From Candidatus Falkowiibacteriota bacterium (lineage in GTDB: Bacteria > Patescibacteriota > Patescibacteriia > Patescibacteriales > SZUA-104): a DNA stretch of 12,719 nucleotides. The notes below the pieces were generated by a model that was not told where the DNA came from, did no database searches, and saw only the letters and a program-made list of their open reading frames with translations. The stretch covers positions 1 to 12,719 of the forward strand of contig QIIF01000084.1 in the NCBI GenBank assembly GCA_003231075.1, written 5' to 3'. This document shows, one piece after another, positions 158 through 12,325 of the stretch (positions are counted from its first letter, which is position 1; each line of letters begins with the position of its first letter). Made by a program: the position numbers and the translations under genes.

Positions 158-544
158 ATGTTGAAAAAAGCAAAAAATTTAATAATTATTCTTTTCGTAT
201 TAACAGCCATGTCTATCGCGGTTAATTTCGCTTTGGCGCAAGGCGCCGATAGTTTGCTTTGGGGCGGAACGCAGAATGAAATCGGCAATACCATCGGATT
301 GGGAAGCGAAGATCCGCGCGTGTTGGCGGCTAAAATAATCAGGGTGTTTATCGGTTTTCTTGGCATTATCGCGGTCGGCTTGATAGTGTATGCCGGATTT
401 CTTTGGATGACTTCCGAAGGAGATGAATCGCAAATAACAAAAGCTAAACAAGTTCTGAAAAACGCGGTTATCGGATTAGCTATTATTTTATTGTCGTTTG
501 GCATAGTCACTTTTATTTTAAGTAAATTTTTAATCGCTACCGGA
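158..544 (+). repeat. Copy 1 of the duplicated anchor-coding segment
   Basis: The first 129 codons here and at 2829-3215 align without gaps, with roughly 97 of 129 residues identical by hand count, and the similarity is obvious at the DNA level too. It stops abruptly after the shared residues ATG at the end of the second membrane helix. The duplicated unit is exactly the signal peptide plus two-helix anchor. Confidence 0.85.
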
Positions 545-2770
545 GTGGGCGGACCGGGCGCGGGAACAAGCCCCCCCGGAGCCGGTATCGGATTTGGGGC
601 TTTAGGCAGTTGTACGGTTGAGAGCGTTTATCCGGAACCGAATCAAGAAGAGGTTCCGAGAAATACCGCCATTATGGTTACATTTAAAGAAGAGGTTGAT
701 CCGACAACTATTTGCAATGACGCGGGCGGGAATAATAACGGCGTTTGCGACGCGGGAGAATATATAATTCCGGAAAATGTGAAAATTTATAAAACCGCCG
801 CCGGGGACGCTTGCGGATCATCATGCAATGGGAATGTTCTTGAAGTGAATGTCGCTACCAATGACAATAAAACTTTTGTTTTTACGCCTGTTAAATATTT
901 GGGTTCGCCGTCGGAGAATATTTGGTACACGATTCATCTGACCAACGAGATAGAAAAAAACGATAAAAGCGGTATAAATGACGGAATTTTTTCCACTTGT
1001 TCAACGGATTATTTGGAATGGCAATTTAAGGTTAGCAATAAAGTGGACTTAACTCCGCCGCAAGTTAAAAAGGGAGGGGTTTTTCCGGCGCCCGACAATG
1101 ATCAGGATGAAATTAATGTGGCAACCGATGCCGTGGCGGCGGACGGCAGCATAGGGGTGCTTAGCCAGCCGAATGTTTATGCCGCGTCAACTGTCATAAG
1201 CGTTAGTAAAAATCCGTCTACCGGCAGCTGGAATGATGCTACCGCGGTTGCAAATAACGGTAATCAAGAGAATGGAATTTTATCAGTTACTATTTTGTCC
1301 GACGGTTTAACGGCTCAATTAAGCAAGGGAAGCGTGTTGCTTGGTTCGTCCGCATTTAGCGGTTCATCTGTATTTTTTTCCGGTTATTTTACCTTAACCG
1401 TTGGCGGCGACGGAAAATATGCCGTCGGCAATTCTTGGAATGTTAATATTACTGCCGAACAAAAAGCGGATACCTTAACCGTAGGCGGCACGATTTATGT
1501 TTTTGGAGAAGATATAGCTGTGGGCGGAACCACTGCCGCGACAGTGTCAAATATTATTGATGCTTTAATTAAAGCTAAAACCAAACTTTTTGGCAGTTTT
1601 GTCACTTCCGGAGATTCAATTTCCATGAGCGCCAATGTAGCCGGCAGCGCCGGTAATAATATTATATTATCAGTCAGTAATACAGGAGCTATTAAGATAA
1701 CACCTATGTCTGGAGGAAAAGATAGAGAAGTGACGACGATTATTAATGACAAAAAAGATCAGCCGAGAAACGCGGCTATTCAGATTAATTTTAATGAAGC
1801 CGTAAATCCTTTGACGATTTCAGGAGATGCCGAGAGCTTGCAAAATTATATCGCGGTAAAATGCGTTGGCGGAGATTGTTCCGGTTCTGAATTTTTTAAT
1901 TGCGGCTCTAATATCTGCGTGCGCGGCAGCTTTAAAGTTTCTAACGGCTATAAAACGGTTGAATTTATTTCAGATAATAAGTGCGGCGTTAACGGATGCG
2001 GGGAAGATATTTATTGTTTGCCGGAGAATAGCAATTTAAGGGTTGACATTACCGCGGCCGCGCTGGATTCATGCGCCGGCGCGAATGATTGCGTCCCGAG
2101 AACGCCGTATAATAATTGCGTGTCCGGCGTATGCCAAAACACGGATGGAGTAAATTACCCCCTTTCGCAATATCCATTAAGCGGAATTGCCGATGTTGCC
2201 TCCAATTCGTTGGATGGCAATAGAAACAAAGAAGCGAATGGTCCCTTGTCTTTTTATAATGAAAATATTGGAGGAGTCGGAGGGGATAATTTTCAATGGT
2301 CTTTTTATATTAACGGTGTAATAGATTTGGCGCCGCCGGAAATTAATTTTATTTCTCCGAAATATAATGATTCAGGCGCTTCTTTAAGTGATCCGGTATT
2401 AATTTCTTTTAGCAAAATAATGATGTCTGACAGTTTAAGAACCGGCAGTAAAACAGTGTCTAACGGCGGGAATAATGTTGAACATAAATTAATAAATATC
2501 AGGAATTTTAAAAATAAGCCAATCGGTTATTGGGTGACCAAAGAAAATATTGATAAACCTCCTTTGGACGGATATCCTGATTATACGCAAGCGCGAATTA
2601 ACCATTCAATGTTTTCCGACACGACCAGCTATCGCTCGCAAGTCGGGTCAGGCGTTAAAGATATATATCAGAATTGTTTCAAGCCAAGCGCCGGACCGAA
2701 TTGCGCGGCTACGGATGCCTTTCCTTCTTGTTGCGGAGAGACGCCCACCGCTGACAGTAAATGCCCGTAA
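158..2770 (+). CDS. Membrane-anchored Ig-like surface protein with pilin-like N-terminus and phage-sheath-like module
   Basis: This is an 870-aa secreted, membrane-held protein. Residues 1-28 look like a signal peptide ending FALAQ. Two membrane helices follow at about 61-84 and 102-124, joined by a short Lys-containing loop; this layout matches TrbC/VirB2-type T4SS pilins as seen in Patescibacteria. A Gly/Pro linker (130-148) leads to an SbsA-type (Big_5) Ig-like domain at about 150-296 (VYPEPNQEEVPRNTAIMVTF). Residues 300-525 form a long beta-rich insert whose part 437-521 resembles the accessory domain of phage tail sheath proteins. A second Big_5 domain begins near 537 (QPRNAAIQINFNEAVNP) and a third near 725 (PPEINFISP). 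The C-terminus has several Cys (840-869). The start is shared with the paralogue 58 bases downstream; no Shine-Dalgarno is visible. A surface or adhesion role is inferred, the ligand is unknown, and a pilus-subunit role is unlikely at this size. Confidence 0.88.
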   Translation: MLKKAKNLIIILFVLTAMSIAVNFALAQGADSLLWGGTQNEIGNTIGLGSEDPRVLAAKIIRVFIGFLGIIAVGLIVYAGFLWMTSEGDESQITKAKQVLKNAVIGLAIILLSFGIVTFILSKFLIATGVGGPGAGTSPPGAGIGFGALGSCTVESVYPEPNQEEVPRNTAIMVTFKEEVDPTTICNDAGGNNNGVCDAGEYIIPENVKIYKTAAGDACGSSCNGNVLEVNVATNDNKTFVFTPVKYLGSPSENIWYTIHLTNEIEKNDKSGINDGIFSTCSTDYLEWQFKVSNKVDLTPPQVKKGGVFPAPDNDQDEINVATDAVAADGSIGVLSQPNVYAASTVISVSKNPSTGSWNDATAVANNGNQENGILSVTILSDGLTAQLSKGSVLLGSSAFSGSSVFFSGYFTLTVGGDGKYAVGNSWNVNITAEQKADTLTVGGTIYVFGEDIAVGGTTAATVSNIIDALIKAKTKLFGSFVTSGDSISMSANVAGSAGNNIILSVSNTGAIKITPMSGGKDREVTTIINDKKDQPRNAAIQINFNEAVNPLTISGDAESLQNYIAVKCVGGDCSGSEFFNCGSNICVRGSFKVSNGYKTVEFISDNKCGVNGCGEDIYCLPENSNLRVDITAAALDSCAGANDCVPRTPYNNCVSGVCQNTDGVNYPLSQYPLSGIADVASNSLDGNRNKEANGPLSFYNENIGGVGGDNFQWSFYINGVIDLAPPEINFISPKYNDSGASLSDPVLISFSKIMMSDSLRTGSKTVSNGGNNVEHKLINIRNFKNKPIGYWVTKENIDKPPLDGYPDYTQARINHSMFSDTTSYRSQVGSGVKDIYQNCFKPSAGPNCAATDAFPSCCGETPTADSKCP

Positions 2771-2828
2771 AAGTTATAAAGTTTATCAAGTAGAAAAGTT
2801 AGAGTATTAAAAATTAATTTTAATTTTG

Positions 2829-3215
2829 ATGTTGAAAAAGGCAAAAAATTTAATAATTATATTCGTCGTATTAACAGCCATGTCAGTCGCGGTTAATTTT
2901 GCTTTGGCGCAAAGCGCCGACAGTTTGCTTTGGGGAGGGACACAGAATGAAGTCGGCAATGTTATCGGACTGGGGAGCGAGGATCCGCGCGTATTGGCTG
3001 CTAATATTATCAGGGTGGCTTTGGGATTTTTAGGCATTATCGCTTTGGTGTTGACAATATACGCCGGATGGCTTTGGATGTCTGCTGCCGGCAATATGGA
3101 GAAAATTGAAAAAGCTAAAAAAGTGCTGACCGGAGCGATAATCGGCTTATTGATAATTTTACTTTCTTTCGGTATTACCACTTTTGTTTTAAATAAATTA
3201 TTGGTCGCTACCGGC
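2829..3215 (+). repeat. Copy 2 of the duplicated anchor-coding segment
   Basis: This is the partner of 158-544. The most variable stretch between copies is the short cytoplasmic loop (residues 85-102); the signal peptide and the mature N-terminus (about residues 30-58) are nearly invariant. Beyond it this copy enters Cys-rich sequence, whereas copy 1 enters a Gly/Pro linker. Confidence 0.85.
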
Positions 3216-6200
3216 GGAGCATGCGATAATGGCGTCGTAAAAACTTGCGGTTGCGCTGATTTGGGAACGCAAACTTGCGTAAGTGAGTCATGGACTGATT
3301 GTAATTATACCTGTAGTACGGGAGAAGCATGCTGCGCTTTCGGATGCGCCGATTCTTGCGATTCTCCCCCTGAATTTCACATTAATTCAACATCTCCCCA
3401 AAACGGCGATACTAATGTTATACGGAATATAAAAATCAGGTATACTTCCAATTTATTTATAGGCAATACAAACCCTGTTAATGCCGTGAATTTTACCGTG
3501 GCAGACGAGTCGGGAGATCAGATTTCGGGAGTAAGAAAAGTGGATGGAAAACGAATCATTTTTACGCCTGACGGCGATTGCGGCAGTAATCCGTGCGGAG
3601 CAACTGACTGTTTTAAGGCGGGAGAAAAAGTGACAGTGGCGGCAGTCAACGGCGCGTCCGGTATTTTGAGCGTAGGCGATATCCAATTAGCTTGTCCCGG
3701 AATAGGCGTGGATTGCGCGATAACATTTAATGTAGGCGATTTAATTGATTGCGAAGATCCGACCGTTAATCTCGGGCTTGGGCAAATATGCGCTGTTCCC
3801 GATAATAATTTATTCGCGAGCAGCGCGGACGATAACGGCGTAGACAGTATAGCGTTTTCAGCCGATGGCGTCAGTGTCGGTTCGGTCGTTAATTCTGACG
3901 GCGATTCTCCTTTTAGCGCCAATGTTTTATGGGATGGAAGTGGTTATACGGCGGGTGATTCTGTGGCATTTACGGCTACCGCCTATGATATTGATAGCCG
4001 CAGCGCGAGCGACAATGAAACAATTAAAATTAAATCCGCGCATTGCTGTAACGGAGTTCAAGATATTGCTGATGGAGAAGAGGGGGTTGATTGCGGAGGT
4101 GAGTGCGGCGCTTGCGCGGGGTCGGCATGCGCTATTGACGCGGAGAATTTGCCGGCGACAAGTTGCAGCGATGATTTATGCGCTTCCGGATTTTGCTCTT
4201 CCAGCGGATCAAACAGCGATAGTTGTTCGGCAAACGGGTATAATTCTGGCGTGTCGGATTGCTGTCTTTGCCAGAACGCGCCGATTATTGATTGGGTGGC
4301 GCCGACAGGCGGATTTTGCGATGATAGCAATAATACGCCTTGCCAAAAGGACAGTGATTGTTCCACTACTTGCGATATAAGCGCGCCTAATGGAGCGAAT
4401 GGCAATTTAGCGACTATCGGCGGGCGGTATTTCGGCGCTGAGCAAGGAGCTGGTTCGGTGGTATTTAATGACGGCGTGAATACTTTTACCGCCGATTTAG
4501 CCGATACCGTGAATATAAATTGTACTAATAGTTGGCAAGACGGACAAATTATAGTTGTTGTTCCGGCCGGCTTGAATCTTGGGCCGGGAACAACTATTAC
4601 AGTGACGGCTGATAATGGATTTTCTGATAATACGCAAAGCGCGGATGGGCGCGGTCCTGATTTTGATTTTATTGTAAACACTATTAAACGCCCCGGACTC
4701 TGTTTAATAAATCCGGACGCAGGCGTAATGAATGATAGCATTACTTATTACGGCATAGGATTAAATGGCGCTACGGCGAAATTCGGCAGCGCGGTTAATA
4801 ATGTTAATGCTTTGAATTCTGTTTTTAGCGGCGATACGCAAGGAACAGCCGATGTGCCGAATATGCAGACGGGGAAAACGACCAGTTTTACCGCGATTAA
4901 ACAAGATAATATAAATATAAACAGTAATTTTTTACGATTTATTAAAAATTCTGAGCCAAAAATCGGACCGAAAATTACTTCTTTTAATCCGATTGAAGGT
5001 AAAGCCGGCCAATATGTGACTATTTACGGCAGCGGATTCGGCTATGCTAAAAAAGCGCAAATAGGCGCGACTCATCATGTTTATTTTGATGACAATCTTA
5101 GCGACTCTATTGACGGCGTGGAGGCGGATTATAATTTTCCGGATATTTGCGGCGACAGTTTATGGTCTGACAATCAAATTATAGTGAAAGCGCCGGCTGG
5201 ATTGGTTAATTTAACCGATTATTACATTGTCATAAATGTTCAGAATTGGGATAAGCCGATTGATTCAAGCGGCATTATCCCCACGGCAACCGCTAATGAT
5301 ACTTTTAAATATGATGAAAGCGCGTCTCTTAAACCGAGTTTATGCAGAATTCAACCAGTTATCGGACCAAATAATAGTGATATATCTTTATGGGGAGAAT
5401 ATTTCGGCGCGCAAGCCGCCGGTTTGGTTAGGTTTAATTTAAACAAAGATCAAAGCGGAAGCGCGATCAGTTATTGGGGCGATGATAACGATGCCAAAAG
5501 AATAGATACGACTGTCCATAATGACGCGGTAAGCGGTCCGGTGGTAGTTGTCCGGGGCGGTGATAAAGGAAATGGAATTAATTTTACGGTTGGTTCATGC
5601 GCGGAGCAAGATAATCCGGATGACGCTTGCGGAACGCAAATATGCTGTCCAGCCGGAACTTACGAAGAAGGAAGATGCGAAGCAACGGCAGATGATTGCT
5701 ATATGAATGTCTCCAGCTCGGTTTATGAGTGGGATTTTAGTACCGGCGGCAGCGGCGGGGCCGGTGATAGTTGCGACTTAGATCGCGGCACTTCTTTATG
5801 TGAGGATAATGGCAGTTGCGGGCAAGGGTTGATTTGCGATACCAGCACTTGCACTTGCCAGCTGCCGACTACATGCTCCGGCTATAATTTAAATCAATGT
5901 CAAGATACGGAATTTTGCCCTAATTCTCCCGGCCAATGTTCGCCTAACGCCGGCGGAGAAACTGTTGATATGGGCGGATGCTCAGACGCGGATTGCAATG
6001 GCGTAGGAGCGTGCGTTGCTCCTCCTTGCTCCTATAGTGTTGACTTAAATAAATGCGTTGATAATACGCAGGGAGATTGCAGTTTGGATTCAACCACTCA
6101 AGATGTTTTTGGCAAGAATATTGCTAAATATTGCTCTGAGTATAATGATGGCGCCAATACTTACGCGGTTTGGCATATTGCCACCGGCGCTTCCTGTCCG

Positions 6201-8843
6201 AATGGATGGACAAGAATTGCCGGCGATAAATGCGTTGATTCCATTACCGCGGATACTTGCAATATTTGTGATAGCGGTTTTACCTGTCTTGATGATAATG
6301 GCGGTGGCGGGCAAGGAATTTGCGGAATAGATCAAGATGTTTGTTCAGCCGGATCTACATGCAATACATCATCGGCAAGATGCGAAACAGCTGATGGCGC
6401 TTCTTGCGATTGTTGTTGTGAAATCGGGCAAGACGCGCGCGATTGCTGCACGGGATTGGTTTGCGGAGGAACATGCGGCAGCGATACCACGGATGATAAT
6501 TCCGGTTTCGGTTCATGCTCCGGATGCAAAATTGAAGTGAACGGAACAGCGGATCAATCTTTGAGCGACGCGGCTTGCAATTGTGAAGGCACAAGCGGAA
6601 AATATTGCGAGCTGAACGATACTGCTTATCCGTCGGGAGTTTGCCGTGATAAGATTTTGGATTGCGCTCCTCCCAATGAGTTATGCGATGATTCTACTTG
6701 TTGCTCCACTGCTTGCGAAGGAACTGTTGGCAGCACTTTTTGCCCGGCCACTTGCGGACCGGGAGAAGAAGAATGCGGAACAGCTTGTTGTTCGGTAGCG
6801 TCCGGAGGGTGTTTGGATGCTAGCGCGAACTTATGCGCGAATTGCGCTCCGGAAGAATATTTATGCGATGATAGTGAATGTTGCGATGTTAATTGCGAAG
6901 GTCCGGCTGGCGAAACATACTGCCCGACTAATCCGAAAATTGAAACTGTTTCTCCGGATAACGGCGCCGCTAATGTTTGCCGAAACGCTTTGATTACAGC
7001 TGATTTTGATCAGAAAATGAATATTCAGAGTTTTAACGGCAATGTAATTATGGTCGGCAATTACGGAGATCAAGTATGTCCGCCCGGCACCGAGTATTTA
7101 GCTATTAATCAGCGAGGGATAATTAATAGAGCGTGGAGAGGAGCTAAAAGGATTATTGCTGGAATATTATCTCCGATATTGCCGCAAGCGCGGGCTTTAT
7201 CTGATAATTTCTGCGCTATTTCAGGGGCTGTAAGCGGTTTTCAAAATTCCGATGATACCACTACTTTAACTTTTTCTCCCAAAGATTTACTTGATGCCGG
7301 AATTAAATATTACGCGGTTATTAAAGGAGATAGAGACTTGAATGACGATAATAAAGAAGGAGTTTTAAATTATAATGGAATCGGCATGGCGGATGATTGG
7401 CGCGATATTAATGGCACGGATCTTACGATCAGTAATGGCGGAACAGTCGATTTAATTGATAGAACGCTTAACAATAAAGAGTATTATGGGTATGTTTGGT
7501 CATTTACCACAATGGATGAACAATCGCCAAACAGCGGGATTTGCAAAATAGATCATGTGAATATCACGCCCGATTCATACTTATTCAATACTACTAATGA
7601 TGACATAAGCGAGAATGACGCTAATTCGGAAGATAGCAGTTTTGATACGGTGAACGATAGAGATAAAGTGTTTGCCGCTTGGGCAATTTCCGCTGATAAT
7701 CAGAAATTATCCAAAGTTGCCGGAGTATATGAATGGAATTGGATTTGGAGTTCTGATAATACCGCGATTATAAATTTAGACTCCGTTAATCCTTTTTCAG
7801 CGGATAGTTATAGGCAGTTATATGAGGTCCAGCAAGGTATTACCGACGGCAAGGCGGTAATATCGGCCATGGCTGATGTTTCAGGCAGCGCTGAAAATGG
7901 AGAAGAAAAATATACAGGCAAAGCTGACGCATGGGTATTTATTTGTAAAAATCCTTGGCCGCCGGTTACCACTAATGGGTTATGGGAGCCGTGGGGAGAT
8001 TATTTTGTTTGTAATGACGGCAGCGGCAGATGTCCGTCAACCGCGAATTTGGGAGATGCTTGCGGGAATGGCGGAACTTGCGCGCAAAATTGCACAATAC
8101 CGGAAGCAGGATGCTTTAATGTAAATTATGAATTTTATTATTGCCGCGACGCGGGAAGTGTAGGCACGGCTGATGATTTGCCGGCCATCTTAAGCGGCAG
8201 TACGATTATTAGAGGATCATCTACCGCGCAGAATTTATTGAAAGAATTTTACTTTTTGCGCGAAGATACGCCTGATGTTTCCGGTGGAATTGGCTTAGCG
8301 GCGGAGGACTTATCTAAAACTACCGAAGGCGTAGTCAAATTAACATGGGCGTCCACGGGAGCGGACGGATATAAAGTTTATTACGGAGGCAGCCCGGGAA
8401 ATTATAGCGATTATGTGGATGTAGGTAATGTCCTTACTAAGGATATTAGCGGTTTAATCATAGGCAAGACTTATTATTTCGCGGTCACCGCTTATGATAA
8501 TACCGGCGCGGAAAGCAAATATTCAAACGAAGCAAGTATTACTCCGAAAGACACGACGCCTCCGGCGCCGCCGGCAGGACTGGCGGAAGATAGCGCTTGC
8601 GAAGGTAAAATATCAATATCATGGGATGCAAATACGGACGATGCCGTCGGCTATAAAGTTTATTACGGAGTTTTATCTGGGCAATATGGAGATTCTTATG
8701 ATGTAAAAGGAGCAACAAGCGCGTCTTTAACCGGTTTAACCGACGGACAGACTTATTATATTGCGGTTACGGCTTATGACAGTTATAATAATGAAAGCGT
8801 ACATTCCAATGAATTGGAAATTAAAATTTTACCAAGTTGTTAA
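2829..8843 (+). CDS. Giant modular Cys-rich surface protein (pilin-like anchor, Ig-like, IPT/TIG, FN3)
   Basis: This 2004-aa protein starts at ATG 2829, aligned with its paralogue; a TTG just upstream (2826) is in frame but is not supported by that alignment. In order: signal peptide 1-28; pilin-like two-helix anchor 61-124; Cys-rich 131-180; Big_5-like 183-302; Big_7-like Ig 305-402; Cys-rich with a GVDCGGECGAC motif 403-484; four IPT/TIG-like domains at about 485-616, 620-707, 709-828 (clear: ITSFNPIEGKAGQYVTIYGSGFG-like) and 833-922; a Cys-rich stalk 923-1366 with about 64 Cys; Big_5 1368-1565; another Ig-like stretch 1572-1707; and two fibronectin III domains at 1817-1907 and 1911-2000 (both with YKVYYG and AVTAYD). 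About 116 cysteines in total suggest disulphide stabilisation outside the cell. It is likely cotranscribed with the 158-2770 gene (58-base gap). An adhesin or host/cell-contact role is inferred; no enzyme domain is seen. Confidence 0.88.
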   Translation: MLKKAKNLIIIFVVLTAMSVAVNFALAQSADSLLWGGTQNEVGNVIGLGSEDPRVLAANIIRVALGFLGIIALVLTIYAGWLWMSAAGNMEKIEKAKKVLTGAIIGLLIILLSFGITTFVLNKLLVATGGACDNGVVKTCGCADLGTQTCVSESWTDCNYTCSTGEACCAFGCADSCDSPPEFHINSTSPQNGDTNVIRNIKIRYTSNLFIGNTNPVNAVNFTVADESGDQISGVRKVDGKRIIFTPDGDCGSNPCGATDCFKAGEKVTVAAVNGASGILSVGDIQLACPGIGVDCAITFNVGDLIDCEDPTVNLGLGQICAVPDNNLFASSADDNGVDSIAFSADGVSVGSVVNSDGDSPFSANVLWDGSGYTAGDSVAFTATAYDIDSRSASDNETIKIKSAHCCNGVQDIADGEEGVDCGGECGACAGSACAIDAENLPATSCSDDLCASGFCSSSGSNSDSCSANGYNSGVSDCCLCQNAPIIDWVAPTGGFCDDSNNTPCQKDSDCSTTCDISAPNGANGNLATIGGRYFGAEQGAGSVVFNDGVNTFTADLADTVNINCTNSWQDGQIIVVVPAGLNLGPGTTITVTADNGFSDNTQSADGRGPDFDFIVNTIKRPGLCLINPDAGVMNDSITYYGIGLNGATAKFGSAVNNVNALNSVFSGDTQGTADVPNMQTGKTTSFTAIKQDNININSNFLRFIKNSEPKIGPKITSFNPIEGKAGQYVTIYGSGFGYAKKAQIGATHHVYFDDNLSDSIDGVEADYNFPDICGDSLWSDNQIIVKAPAGLVNLTDYYIVINVQNWDKPIDSSGIIPTATANDTFKYDESASLKPSLCRIQPVIGPNNSDISLWGEYFGAQAAGLVRFNLNKDQSGSAISYWGDDNDAKRIDTTVHNDAVSGPVVVVRGGDKGNGINFTVGSCAEQDNPDDACGTQICCPAGTYEEGRCEATADDCYMNVSSSVYEWDFSTGGSGGAGDSCDLDRGTSLCEDNGSCGQGLICDTSTCTCQLPTTCSGYNLNQCQDTEFCPNSPGQCSPNAGGETVDMGGCSDADCNGVGACVAPPCSYSVDLNKCVDNTQGDCSLDSTTQDVFGKNIAKYCSEYNDGANTYAVWHIATGASCPNGWTRIAGDKCVDSITADTCNICDSGFTCLDDNGGGGQGICGIDQDVCSAGSTCNTSSARCETADGASCDCCCEIGQDARDCCTGLVCGGTCGSDTTDDNSGFGSCSGCKIEVNGTADQSLSDAACNCEGTSGKYCELNDTAYPSGVCRDKILDCAPPNELCDDSTCCSTACEGTVGSTFCPATCGPGEEECGTACCSVASGGCLDASANLCANCAPEEYLCDDSECCDVNCEGPAGETYCPTNPKIETVSPDNGAANVCRNALITADFDQKMNIQSFNGNVIMVGNYGDQVCPPGTEYLAINQRGIINRAWRGAKRIIAGILSPILPQARALSDNFCAISGAVSGFQNSDDTTTLTFSPKDLLDAGIKYYAVIKGDRDLNDDNKEGVLNYNGIGMADDWRDINGTDLTISNGGTVDLIDRTLNNKEYYGYVWSFTTMDEQSPNSGICKIDHVNITPDSYLFNTTNDDISENDANSEDSSFDTVNDRDKVFAAWAISADNQKLSKVAGVYEWNWIWSSDNTAIINLDSVNPFSADSYRQLYEVQQGITDGKAVISAMADVSGSAENGEEKYTGKADAWVFICKNPWPPVTTNGLWEPWGDYFVCNDGSGRCPSTANLGDACGNGGTCAQNCTIPEAGCFNVNYEFYYCRDAGSVGTADDLPAILSGSTIIRGSSTAQNLLKEFYFLREDTPDVSGGIGLAAEDLSKTTEGVVKLTWASTGADGYKVYYGGSPGNYSDYVDVGNVLTKDISGLIIGKTYYFAVTAYDNTGAESKYSNEASITPKDTTPPAPPAGLAEDSACEGKISISWDANTDDAVGYKVYYGVLSGQYGDSYDVKGATSASLTGLTDGQTYYIAVTAYDSYNNESVHSNELEIKILPSC
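5595..6926 (+). other. Cys-rich stalk region within the giant surface protein
   Basis: Residues 923-1366 contain about 64 cysteines in 444 residues, many as CC or CCC, with Asp/Gly/Asn-rich spacers. It includes a diverged internal repeat: residues 1279-1306 and 1339-1366 share the pattern CAP-LCDDS-CC-CEG-G-CP. The spacing is reminiscent of EGF/TIL-like disulphide knots, but I cannot assign it to a named family. Confidence 0.65.
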
Positions 8844-11212: not shown

Positions 11213-11260
11213 TAACTTTTAACGGACAGTTTGCTATAGCGATTTTTTCGGATAATTTAA

Positions 11261-11474: not shown

Positions 11475-11569
11475 GCGGACTGTTTGCGAACGAGAGTGAG
11501 CGGACAGTTTGCGGCTCGGCTCCAAACCCGCAAACTGTCCGTCCCGAAGCGTCGGGGCAAACAGTCCGC
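11475..11569. repeat. Nested palindrome of four 13-mer units
   Basis: The unit GCGGACWGTTTGC occurs forward at 11475-11487 and 11500-11512, and inverted at 11530-11541 (12 bases) and 11557-11569. The outer pair is a perfect 13-bp dyad. The inner arms 11501-11514 and 11528-11541 are a perfect 14-bp dyad with a 13-base loop. A third small stem, CCCGA/TCGGG around AGCG, lies in the right spacer. Another 12-base copy is at 11223-11234. This looks like a REP-type element; its function is unknown. Confidence 0.75.
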
Positions 11570-11753: not shown

Positions 11754-12122
11754 ATGAAACAAGAAAAAAATATAAAACAAAATATAAAATACTGGCTTGC
11801 CGGCTCGGAAAAAGATTTTGACGCCGCCAAAGGCCTCTATAAATTAAAACATTATCCCCAGTGTCTATTTTTCTGCCATTTGAGTTTAGAAAAAATACTA
11901 AAAGCAATCGTTGTAAAAAGAATTAAAGATTACGCTCCGTTTATCCATGATTTAAGAAGATTATCAGAGATTGCAGGCGTGGAATTGGATAATGAAAGAA
12001 AAAAAATGTTGGATACTATTTTTACTTTTAATATCGCCGGCAGATACGCTGAAGAGAAATTTGATTTTTATAAAATAGACCTGTTGCCTAATAAGCTTCG
12101 TAACGAAATTTTCAGATTTTGA
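11754..12122 (+). CDS. HEPN-domain protein, C-terminally truncated by a MITE-like insertion
   Basis: As it stands this frame encodes 122 aa. Residues 11-54 fit the HEPN family (PF05168 type): WLAGSEKDFDAAKGLY, then CHLSLEKILKAIVV. FIHDLRRL (64-71) and FNIAGRYAEEKFDFYK (92-107) fit the family's later helices. It is not the HepT/DUF86 type: no Rx4HxY motif is seen, so RNase activity cannot be claimed. HEPN proteins paired with MNT nucleotidyltransferases form toxin-antitoxin or related modules. Residues 109-122 are encoded by the element inserted at 12076-12235, and the TGA stop lies inside it. The original 28 C-terminal codons persist at about 12239-12325, implying an ancestral protein of about 136 aa that overlapped the next gene by 31 bases. 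Whether the truncated protein folds is unknown. Confidence 0.8.
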   Translation: MKQEKNIKQNIKYWLAGSEKDFDAAKGLYKLKHYPQCLFFCHLSLEKILKAIVVKRIKDYAPFIHDLRRLSEIAGVELDNERKKMLDTIFTFNIAGRYAEEKFDFYKIDLLPNKLRNEIFRF

Positions 12123-12235
12123 GGAAATTTTTTCAAAAATTTTTGAGGGAATATGGCTATATTAGCGAAAAAATTTTTGGAAAAATTTACCAAAATATGG
12201 AAATTGCAGTAGGAGCTTATTAGGCAACAGGTCTA
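12076..12235. mobile_element. MITE-like non-autonomous element with 22-bp terminal inverted repeats
   Basis: The 22-base arms 12076-12097 and 12214-12235 are perfect reverse complements, with core AGACCTGTTGCCTAATAAG. The interior is A/T-rich and continues the dyad imperfectly toward a centre near 12155, so the whole element can fold into one long hairpin. No transposase is encoded. The flanks allow a 2-bp TA or a 3-bp AAT target duplication; removing the element under either model restores the HEPN frame. The GACCTGTTGC end resembles IS5-superfamily termini from memory, which is tentative. Confidence 0.85.
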
Positions 12236-12244
12236 ATATATAAT
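12217..12244 (+). promoter_or_regulatory. Possible hybrid promoter at the element's right end
   Basis: TATAAT at 12239-12244 lies in the original gene sequence just outside the element. TTATTA at 12217-12222, inside the right terminal repeat, is 16 bases away but matches the -35 consensus in only three positions. Transcription would start near 12251 and serve the nucleotidyltransferase gene at 12295. This is speculative. Confidence 0.3.
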
Positions 12245-12325
12245 GATAAAAATTACGCCGATAAATATTTAAAAATAACCAAAAATTTATTGCTATGGCT
12301 AAAAAAAGAATTCCTGAAAAAATAA
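12236..12325 (+). pseudogene. Severed 3' end of the HEPN gene
   Basis: From 12239 the frame reads YNDKNYADKY and continues to LLLWLKKEFLKK before TAA at 12323-12325. Lys-rich sequence with a WLKK end, following FYK, is typical of the final helix of HEPN proteins and matches what the truncated gene lacks. It has no start of its own. Its last 31 bases lie inside the next gene, recording the original overlapping HEPN-MNT arrangement. Confidence 0.8.

What the first reader, a model, noticed from the sequence alone, without database searches (positions are those of the whole stretch)
11754..12325. HEPN gene of a HEPN/MNT pair split by a MITE-like element, with the lost end still readable
The frame runs through FYK (residues 105-107), enters a perfect terminal repeat, and stops 14 residues later inside the element. 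Directly beyond the other repeat, a frame of 28 codons gives a Lys-rich helix ending WLKKEFLKK and TAA, just what a PF05168-type HEPN protein needs. Removing the element with one target duplication (TA or AAT) rejoins the frames and recreates a 31-base overlap with the nucleotidyltransferase gene. The putative toxin side is damaged and the antitoxin side is intact, the expected order of decay in such modules.
Basis: partly seen in the sequence, partly recalled or inferred. Interest (0 to 1): 0.75.

Follow-up and report, generated by a model that had tools for sequence, protein, structure and literature searches.

The report
Small mobile element broke HEPN gene
A 158-base hairpin-forming mobile element has landed inside a HEPN gene (the presumed poison half of a poison/antidote gene pair) in a tiny-genome bacterium, leaving both halves of the broken gene readable and the antidote-type gene whole, so this is a clear but fairly ordinary case of a gene being switched off by a mobile element.

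Summary
A HEPN gene (PF05168) is cut by a 158-bp palindromic element (12077-12234) flanked by AAT/AAT. The lost tail (12239-12325) is real: an HMM built without the window matches the first piece at positions 2-106 and the tail at 107-132 (21.2 bits; best unrelated tail-type hit 6.6 among 14,398 ORFs). The three nearest relatives (60-65% identical) are uninterrupted and 129-141 aa long. The element is a non-autonomous IS5-type MITE: identical 3-bp duplications flank 17 of 22 copies. Two other genomes hold ~1-kb elements with matching ends and a DDE_Tnp_4 transposase, open in one; none was found in the window's own, incomplete genome. Of 87 loci surveyed, window included, 7 have a broken HEPN beside an intact MNT; none shows the reverse. 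One has an unrelated repeat inserted within about two codons of the same place. Toxicity is untested, and the RNase motif RX4-6H is absent. New beyond the finding: the element's ~100-bp core recurs in a second MITE class with different ends and 5-bp duplications. The broken gene was not rejoined.

The parts
11754..12076 (+). HEPN gene, first part (residues 1-107 and two bases of the next codon); holds the E-x3-K motif, the invariant H and the invariant R-Y of the family
   Evidence: PF05168 50.9 bits; 60-65% identical to L055-L057; invariant columns in 20 relatives
12074..12076 (.). left 3-bp target duplication AAT
12077..12234 (.). 158-bp MITE (class A); supplies the last 14 residues and the stop of the truncated HEPN frame (12120-12122)
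   Evidence: matches in 24 of 60 genomes (own included) at E<=0.001, one 96% identical full-length copy in G052
12077..12097 (+). left terminal inverted repeat AGACCTGTTGCCTAATAAGCT
   Evidence: 21 of 21 identical to the right end
12214..12234 (-). right terminal inverted repeat
12106..12205 (.). AT-rich quasi-palindromic core shared with class B MITEs that have other ends
12235..12237 (.). right 3-bp target duplication AAT
12239..12325 (+). HEPN gene, displaced last 28 codons and TAA
   Evidence: HMM positions 107-132, 21.2 bits; 75% identical to the end of L057
12295..12624 (+). MNT nucleotidyltransferase gene, intact, 109 aa
   Evidence: PF01909 46.4 bits; 49-62% identical to the MNT genes of L055-L058, L060 and L061; weak match to solved Mnt antidote chains, best 5yep_A E 0.0035

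Best explanation
A two-gene HEPN-MNT module, with the HEPN gene first and overlapping MNT by 31 bases, was hit by a non-autonomous IS5-type element (MITE). An IS5-type transposase supplied in trans (inferred) moved the 158-bp element into an AAT target, duplicating it. The HEPN frame now ends after 107 native residues plus 15 others, so the last stretch of the domain is lost (a helix by the family's description; not modelled here). MNT remains intact and its start lies 60 bases beyond the element. The putative toxin is most likely inactive and MNT is an orphan. Shown: the split, the element, its duplication, its copies, TIR-matched transposases and intact relatives. Inferred: transposition in trans, loss of HEPN activity, and continued expression of MNT.
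For: Pieces match adjoining HMM positions 2-106 and 107-132. The three nearest intact relatives are 129-141 aa, and 15 of 18 rows overlap MNT by 16-40 bases, 5 of them by exactly 31. Flanks AAT/AAT; 17 of 22 class A copies have identical AWT flanks against 8.7 expected. A full-length copy 96% identical lies in a genome of another family. The end pattern gives 107 hits in 18 of 145 genomes, many as facing pairs about 160 bp apart, and 6 hits for the reversed control. The only PF13359 match in 60 relatives lies inside a 1056-bp element with the same ends. G153 has 1021- and 1023-bp elements with such ends and open transposase frames of 307 and 300 codons; the L127 protein matches DDE_Tnp_4 at 99 bits.
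Against: No orthologous empty site is known: the same-genus genome searched has no HEPN match. No PF13359 transposase was found in the window's genome, which is only 80.7% complete. Of the three TIR-matched ISs only L127 has equal flanking triplets; L096 and L117 do not. L127's transposase falls below NCBIfam's cut-off for IS5 (75.5 against 140). Nothing shows that the truncated protein is inactive. Structure prediction was tried six times and never accepted.
Confidence: 0.93

Rival explanations
1. The truncated 122-residue HEPN is still a working protein; the element only swapped its last stretch for 15 other residues.
For: The E-x3-K, H and R-Y residues all lie in the retained part. Two lineages carry inserts within about two codons of the same site (window; L062, by eye), so this place may be tolerated. 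The first part is open from its ATG to the element.
Against: The 10 intact relatives aligned all have the tail region, and it is conserved enough to be recognised alone (21.2 bits). L062 also has an N-terminal frame change, so there the gene is plainly dead.
Confidence: 0.1
2. MNT is under selection as an orphan antidote (anti-addiction) or a separate regulator, and loss of HEPN was favoured; this is more than neutral decay.
For: 7 of 87 loci have a broken HEPN with an intact MNT, 0 the reverse. The window's genome has a second MNT-HEPN pair, G000:C4, in the same state.
Against: Small numbers, found with HEPN as bait; three loci with intact HEPN had no MNT hit, two of them cut by contig ends. 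Inactivating a toxin first is also what simple addiction predicts. No measure of selection on MNT was made.
Confidence: 0.3
3. The insert is an assembly artefact.
For: The contig ends 394 bases after the stop of the HEPN tail and the assembly is in 193 contigs.
Against: Flanks show a target duplication and continuous HEPN homology on both sides; the held assembly has no second near-identical copy that could cause a mis-join (best other place 80% over 117 bases).
Confidence: 0.02

Closest known systems
HEPN-MNT (type VII) toxin-antitoxin modules: HepT/MntA (PMC7641770, start of abstract seen in a search listing) and the HEPN-T family PF05168 in Anantharaman et al. 2013 (PMC3710099, passages read)
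   Same: HEPN next to a minimal nucleotidyltransferase; E-x3-K motif; MNT retained
   Different: HEPN comes first, whereas PMC3710099 says MNT is almost always first; no RX4-6H motif (that paper notes that D replaces H in several PF05168 cases and that such proteins have another conserved H); HEPN interrupted; MNT below the MntA equivalog cut-off (35.8 against 60)
IS5-family insertion sequences with DDE_Tnp_4/HTH_Tnp_4 transposases (ISL2-like; subgroup name and its ANT duplication are recalled)
   Same: ends AGACCTGTTGC, 3-bp AWT duplication, TIR-matched elements of 1021-1056 bp with such a transposase
   Different: the window element has no transposase and shares with the three ISs only the ends (no interior match better than E 0.68)
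Bacterial MITEs such as RUP, Correia/NEMIS and ERIC (recalled)
   Same: about 100-160 bp, long hairpin, many copies, no coding capacity
   Different: other sequence; here the core is shared between two classes with different ends and duplication lengths

Membership tests
HEPN domain PF05168 (HEPN-T) | Pfam gathering score | tested here: met
   first piece 50.9 bits against 22
HEPN domain PF05168 (HEPN-T) | C-terminal tail of the domain | tested here: met
   present but displaced: HMM 107-132, 21.2 bits; not part of the current ORF, and no Pfam HEPN match alone
HEPN ribonuclease toxins | RX4-6H active-site motif | tested here: not met
   invariant R102-Y103 has no H at +5 to +7 in the window piece or the 10 relatives displayed; invariant H70 elsewhere
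HEPN ribonuclease toxins | E-x3-[KR] motif named in PMC3710099 | tested here: met
   E51 and K55 invariant in 20 relatives and present in the window
Type VII HEPN-MNT toxin-antitoxin | adjacent HEPN and MNT genes | tested here: met
Type VII HEPN-MNT toxin-antitoxin | MntA equivalog NF047752 score | tested here: not met
   35.8 bits against 60
Type VII HEPN-MNT toxin-antitoxin | toxicity neutralised by nucleotidylation | not testable with these tools
   needs expression experiments
MITE of an IS5-type IS | short, no transposase, terminal inverted repeats | tested here: met
   158 bp, 21/21 end match
MITE of an IS5-type IS | target duplication | tested here: met
   AAT/AAT; AWT identical in 17 of 22 copies
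MITE of an IS5-type IS | ends shared with an autonomous element | tested here: met
   of 22 end bases: L127 17 and 17, L096 16 and 18, L117 17 and 14
IS5 family, NCBIfam equivalog transpos_IS5_4 | curated cut-off by the partner transposase L127 | tested here: not met
   75.5 bits against 140; Pfam DDE_Tnp_4 met at 99 bits against 24.8
ISL2 subgroup of IS5 | ANT target duplication (recalled) | tested here: inconclusive
   AWT observed, but the subgroup rule was not found in the passages read, and a review that may hold it is not in the library

The most novel reading that the evidence does not exclude
The element belongs to a family of MITEs, in what appear to be Patescibacteria, in which one ~100-bp quasi-palindromic core is combined with two different sets of ends: class A (AGACCTGTTGC, 3-bp duplication, IS5-type transposase) and class B (GGGACTGTCGCC, 5-bp duplication, transposase unknown). 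The core would then be a selected module that has changed transposition machinery, for instance by helping to bring the ends of so short a DNA together. Such elements repeatedly silence HEPN genes while sparing their MNT partners, leaving orphan MNTs with a role of their own.
Probability: 0.3. Interest if true: 0.6.

Novelty: new member of a known kind. Interest (0 to 1): 0.38.

Why it matters
It is a clear snapshot of how a HEPN-MNT pair decays in a reduced genome, and it gives a countable test of whether the presumed toxin dies first. The MITE family gains a TIR-matched IS5-type partner. Its shared core with two kinds of ends makes it possible to test whether MITE interiors are functional. 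I saw no description of Patescibacteria MITEs in the held library, within these searches: (Patescibacteria with miniature inverted-repeat) returned 0 papers; held 148, 281 and 366 papers, of which only the 20, 12 and 10 listed were seen, by title and start of abstract, and none of these is on the subject.

Tried and rejected
Rejected: a plain TA duplication (IS630-like). TA fits all 22 copies, but the co-variation of the flanking triplets is better explained by a 3-bp AWT duplication.

Rejected: the second piece being a chance ORF, and intact close relatives ending near residue 108.

Weak: phased A-tracts (curved DNA) as the reason for core conservation. Only 17 of 40 elements have at most 5 of 100 shuffles as good; 5 of 60 random window stretches pass a like test. 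Left as a lead.

Led nowhere: HEPN in viral contigs (16 stretches matched a pattern, none confirmed); solved structures for HEPN by sequence (best E 0.99 and 0.33); promoter and terminator scan (4 promoter-like sites against a shuffle mean of 4.9; no terminator-like site); a transposase beside class B ends in 20 fetched stretches (judged by eye from the first 70 residues of ORFs of 130 codons or more, no HMM run); structure prediction (six tries, machine busy).

Rows dropped: for the survey, one search's L066 (a 12-residue match) was left out; 100 loci were given to the HMM search, of which 9 (L196, L199, L239, L246, L250-L254) gave no HEPN hit and were dropped, among them L250, which one search shows with a stop inside and a 60-aa frame; duplicates were merged, leaving 87. 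'Intact' meant a single hit in an ORF of 100 codons or more, so L183 counts as intact although one search reports a TAA inside it. L018 lies near a contig end but its frame change is internal. Three loci with intact HEPN had no MNT hit: L243 and L185 lie at contig ends, L249 is a weak match; two with broken HEPN (L248, L221) had none either.

Full report
What was claimed and what is there. The ORF 11754-12122 is a HEPN domain protein: PF05168, 50.9 bits against a cut-off of 22. After 107 native residues it enters an exact inverted repeat and ends inside the element. The 28 codons at 12239-12325 have no Pfam HEPN match alone (one search shows only a weak unrelated one), so they were tested another way. 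An HMM of 14 intact relatives, without the window, matched the first piece at positions 2-106 and the second at 107-132, exactly adjoining. The second scores 21.2 bits; among 14,398 ORFs the only other tail-type hits above 6.6 bits are the displaced tails of L062 and L061, themselves broken HEPN genes. In an alignment with the pieces as separate rows, the first is 61% and the second 75% identical to the Nealsonbacteria protein L057.

Intact relatives. One scan of the genome-contig collection gave 12 loci, nearest a Terrybacteria (65%), a Parcubacteria (60%) and a Nealsonbacteria (61%) record; the twelfth is a 12-residue match and was ignored. These three HEPN proteins have 129, 139 and 141 residues as extracted (137 for the second if its ATG at 3007 is used), and 15 of the 18 rows overlap MNT by 16-40 bases, 5 of them by exactly 31. 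The same-genus genome G001 has no HEPN match, so the empty site itself is not available.

The element. It is 158 bp with ends identical over 21 bases, and folds as one hairpin (z -11.5 as DNA with flanks; -12.7 as RNA). Of 60 genomes, own included, 24 have matches at E<=0.001, one of them a 96% full-length copy in a genome of another family. The end pattern gives 107 hits in 18 of 145 genomes and 6 for the reversed control. For 22 distinct copies with ends of this class, the flanking triplets are AAT/AAT in 11, ATT/ATT in 6 and unequal in 5; 17 identical against 8.7 expected from cross-pairing (Fisher p 0.0004 on the AAT/ATT part). The window has AAT/AAT.

The partner. In 60 relatives the only DDE_Tnp_4 match lies within a decayed 1056-bp element with these ends in G030. 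In 380 genomes of the class, 10 have a match, 7 over the cut-off; in G153 two elements of 1021 and 1023 bp have the ends and open transposase frames of 307 and 300 codons. Of these three ISs only the 1023-bp one is flanked by equal triplets (ATT/ATT); the others differ by a base. Its protein matches DDE_Tnp_4, DDE_Tnp_1 and, below cut-off, HTH_Tnp_4, and NCBIfam's IS5 model below its cut-off. No match was found in the window's own genome, which is 80.7% complete, so the element is probably immobile there now.

Does the HEPN side decay first? From the HEPN searches I took 100 loci; one gave a hit and 87 remained after merging duplicates. HEPN and MNT are both whole in 75 (58 with HEPN first, 17 with MNT first). 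HEPN is broken and MNT whole in 7: the window, L018, L022, L023, L061, L062 and L209. MNT broken beside a whole HEPN: 0. Five have no MNT hit (3 with whole HEPN, two of these at contig ends; 2 with broken HEPN). L209 is a second pair in the window's own genome, its HEPN broken by a frame change and a further stop, so both HEPN genes found there are broken. All seven pointing one way has probability 0.008 under a coin toss, but the loci were found with HEPN as bait and are few.

A parallel case. In L062 the HEPN gene is cut after FY, within about two codons of the window's site, by an insert beyond which the HEPN tail resumes (by eye). That insert is a repeat with 62 matches in its own genome, itself included, one 92% identical over 113 bases, and it has no match longer than 8 bases with the window's element. 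Two unrelated repeats at one place may mean a favoured target or a tolerated spot; two cases cannot decide.

The shared core. Class B elements (ends GGGACTGTCGCC) have end-pattern hits in 12 of 60 genomes, own included. Of 22 examined for flanks, 8 have identical 5-bp duplications against 0.24 expected. Sixteen of 22 class A and 24 of 29 class B elements have the window's core at E<=1e-3; part of these were found through the core, so the fractions are biased upward. Mean identity between classes is 0.65 in the core, between the within-class values of 0.72 and 0.63, but 0.51-0.52 at the ends, where within-class identity is 0.78-0.82. Ends and duplication length differ, the core does not. The ends still share a CTGTYGC-like stretch, so descent from one ancestor whose ends diverged is as possible as exchange of ends.

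Function of the pair. Invariant residues in 20 relatives include E51, K55, H70, R102 and Y103. The RX4-6H motif is absent from the window piece and the 10 relatives displayed; PMC3710099 (passages read) reports that D replaces the H in several PF05168 cases and that HEPN proteins without the motif were still toxic in a genome-scale screen. So 'toxin' is a reasonable reading and not a result.

Verdict. It is a well-preserved example of a known kind of event, with a MITE family behind it that I did not find described in my searches.

Noticed in passing
window 11222-11234, 11475-11569: A third type of palindromic repeat, CGGACTGTTTGC and CGGACAGTTTGC in inverted pairs; 22 matches with up to one mismatch in the genome, none for the reversed control.
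   Followed up: partly
L209 600-1400 (G000:C4 of the same genome): A second MNT-HEPN pair, MNT first; MNT whole, HEPN broken by a frame change and a further stop.
   Followed up: yes
L062 3262-3374: An unrelated high-copy repeat cuts another HEPN gene at nearly the same codon as in the window.
   Followed up: yes
L004, L006, L035, L036, L039, L045 and others: Class B MITEs with GGGACTGTCGCC-like ends, 5-bp duplications in 8 of 22 examined, share the core of the window's element; no transposase partner found.
   Followed up: partly
L097 971-1130: A class A copy starts within the stop codon (TAG, 971-973) of an ORF that looks like a ribosomal protein gene (by eye), so it supplies part of that stop.
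   Followed up: no
loci: HEPN comes before MNT in 64 of 82 pairs with both genes, although PMC3710099 says MNT is almost always first. The sample was drawn with HEPN queries, partly with the window's own H-first type.
   Followed up: partly
window 158-8843: Two long tandem genes (870 and 2005 aa) whose N-terminal parts look alike by eye; the first has a T4SS_pilin match, 31.4 bits; the second was not scanned.
   Followed up: no
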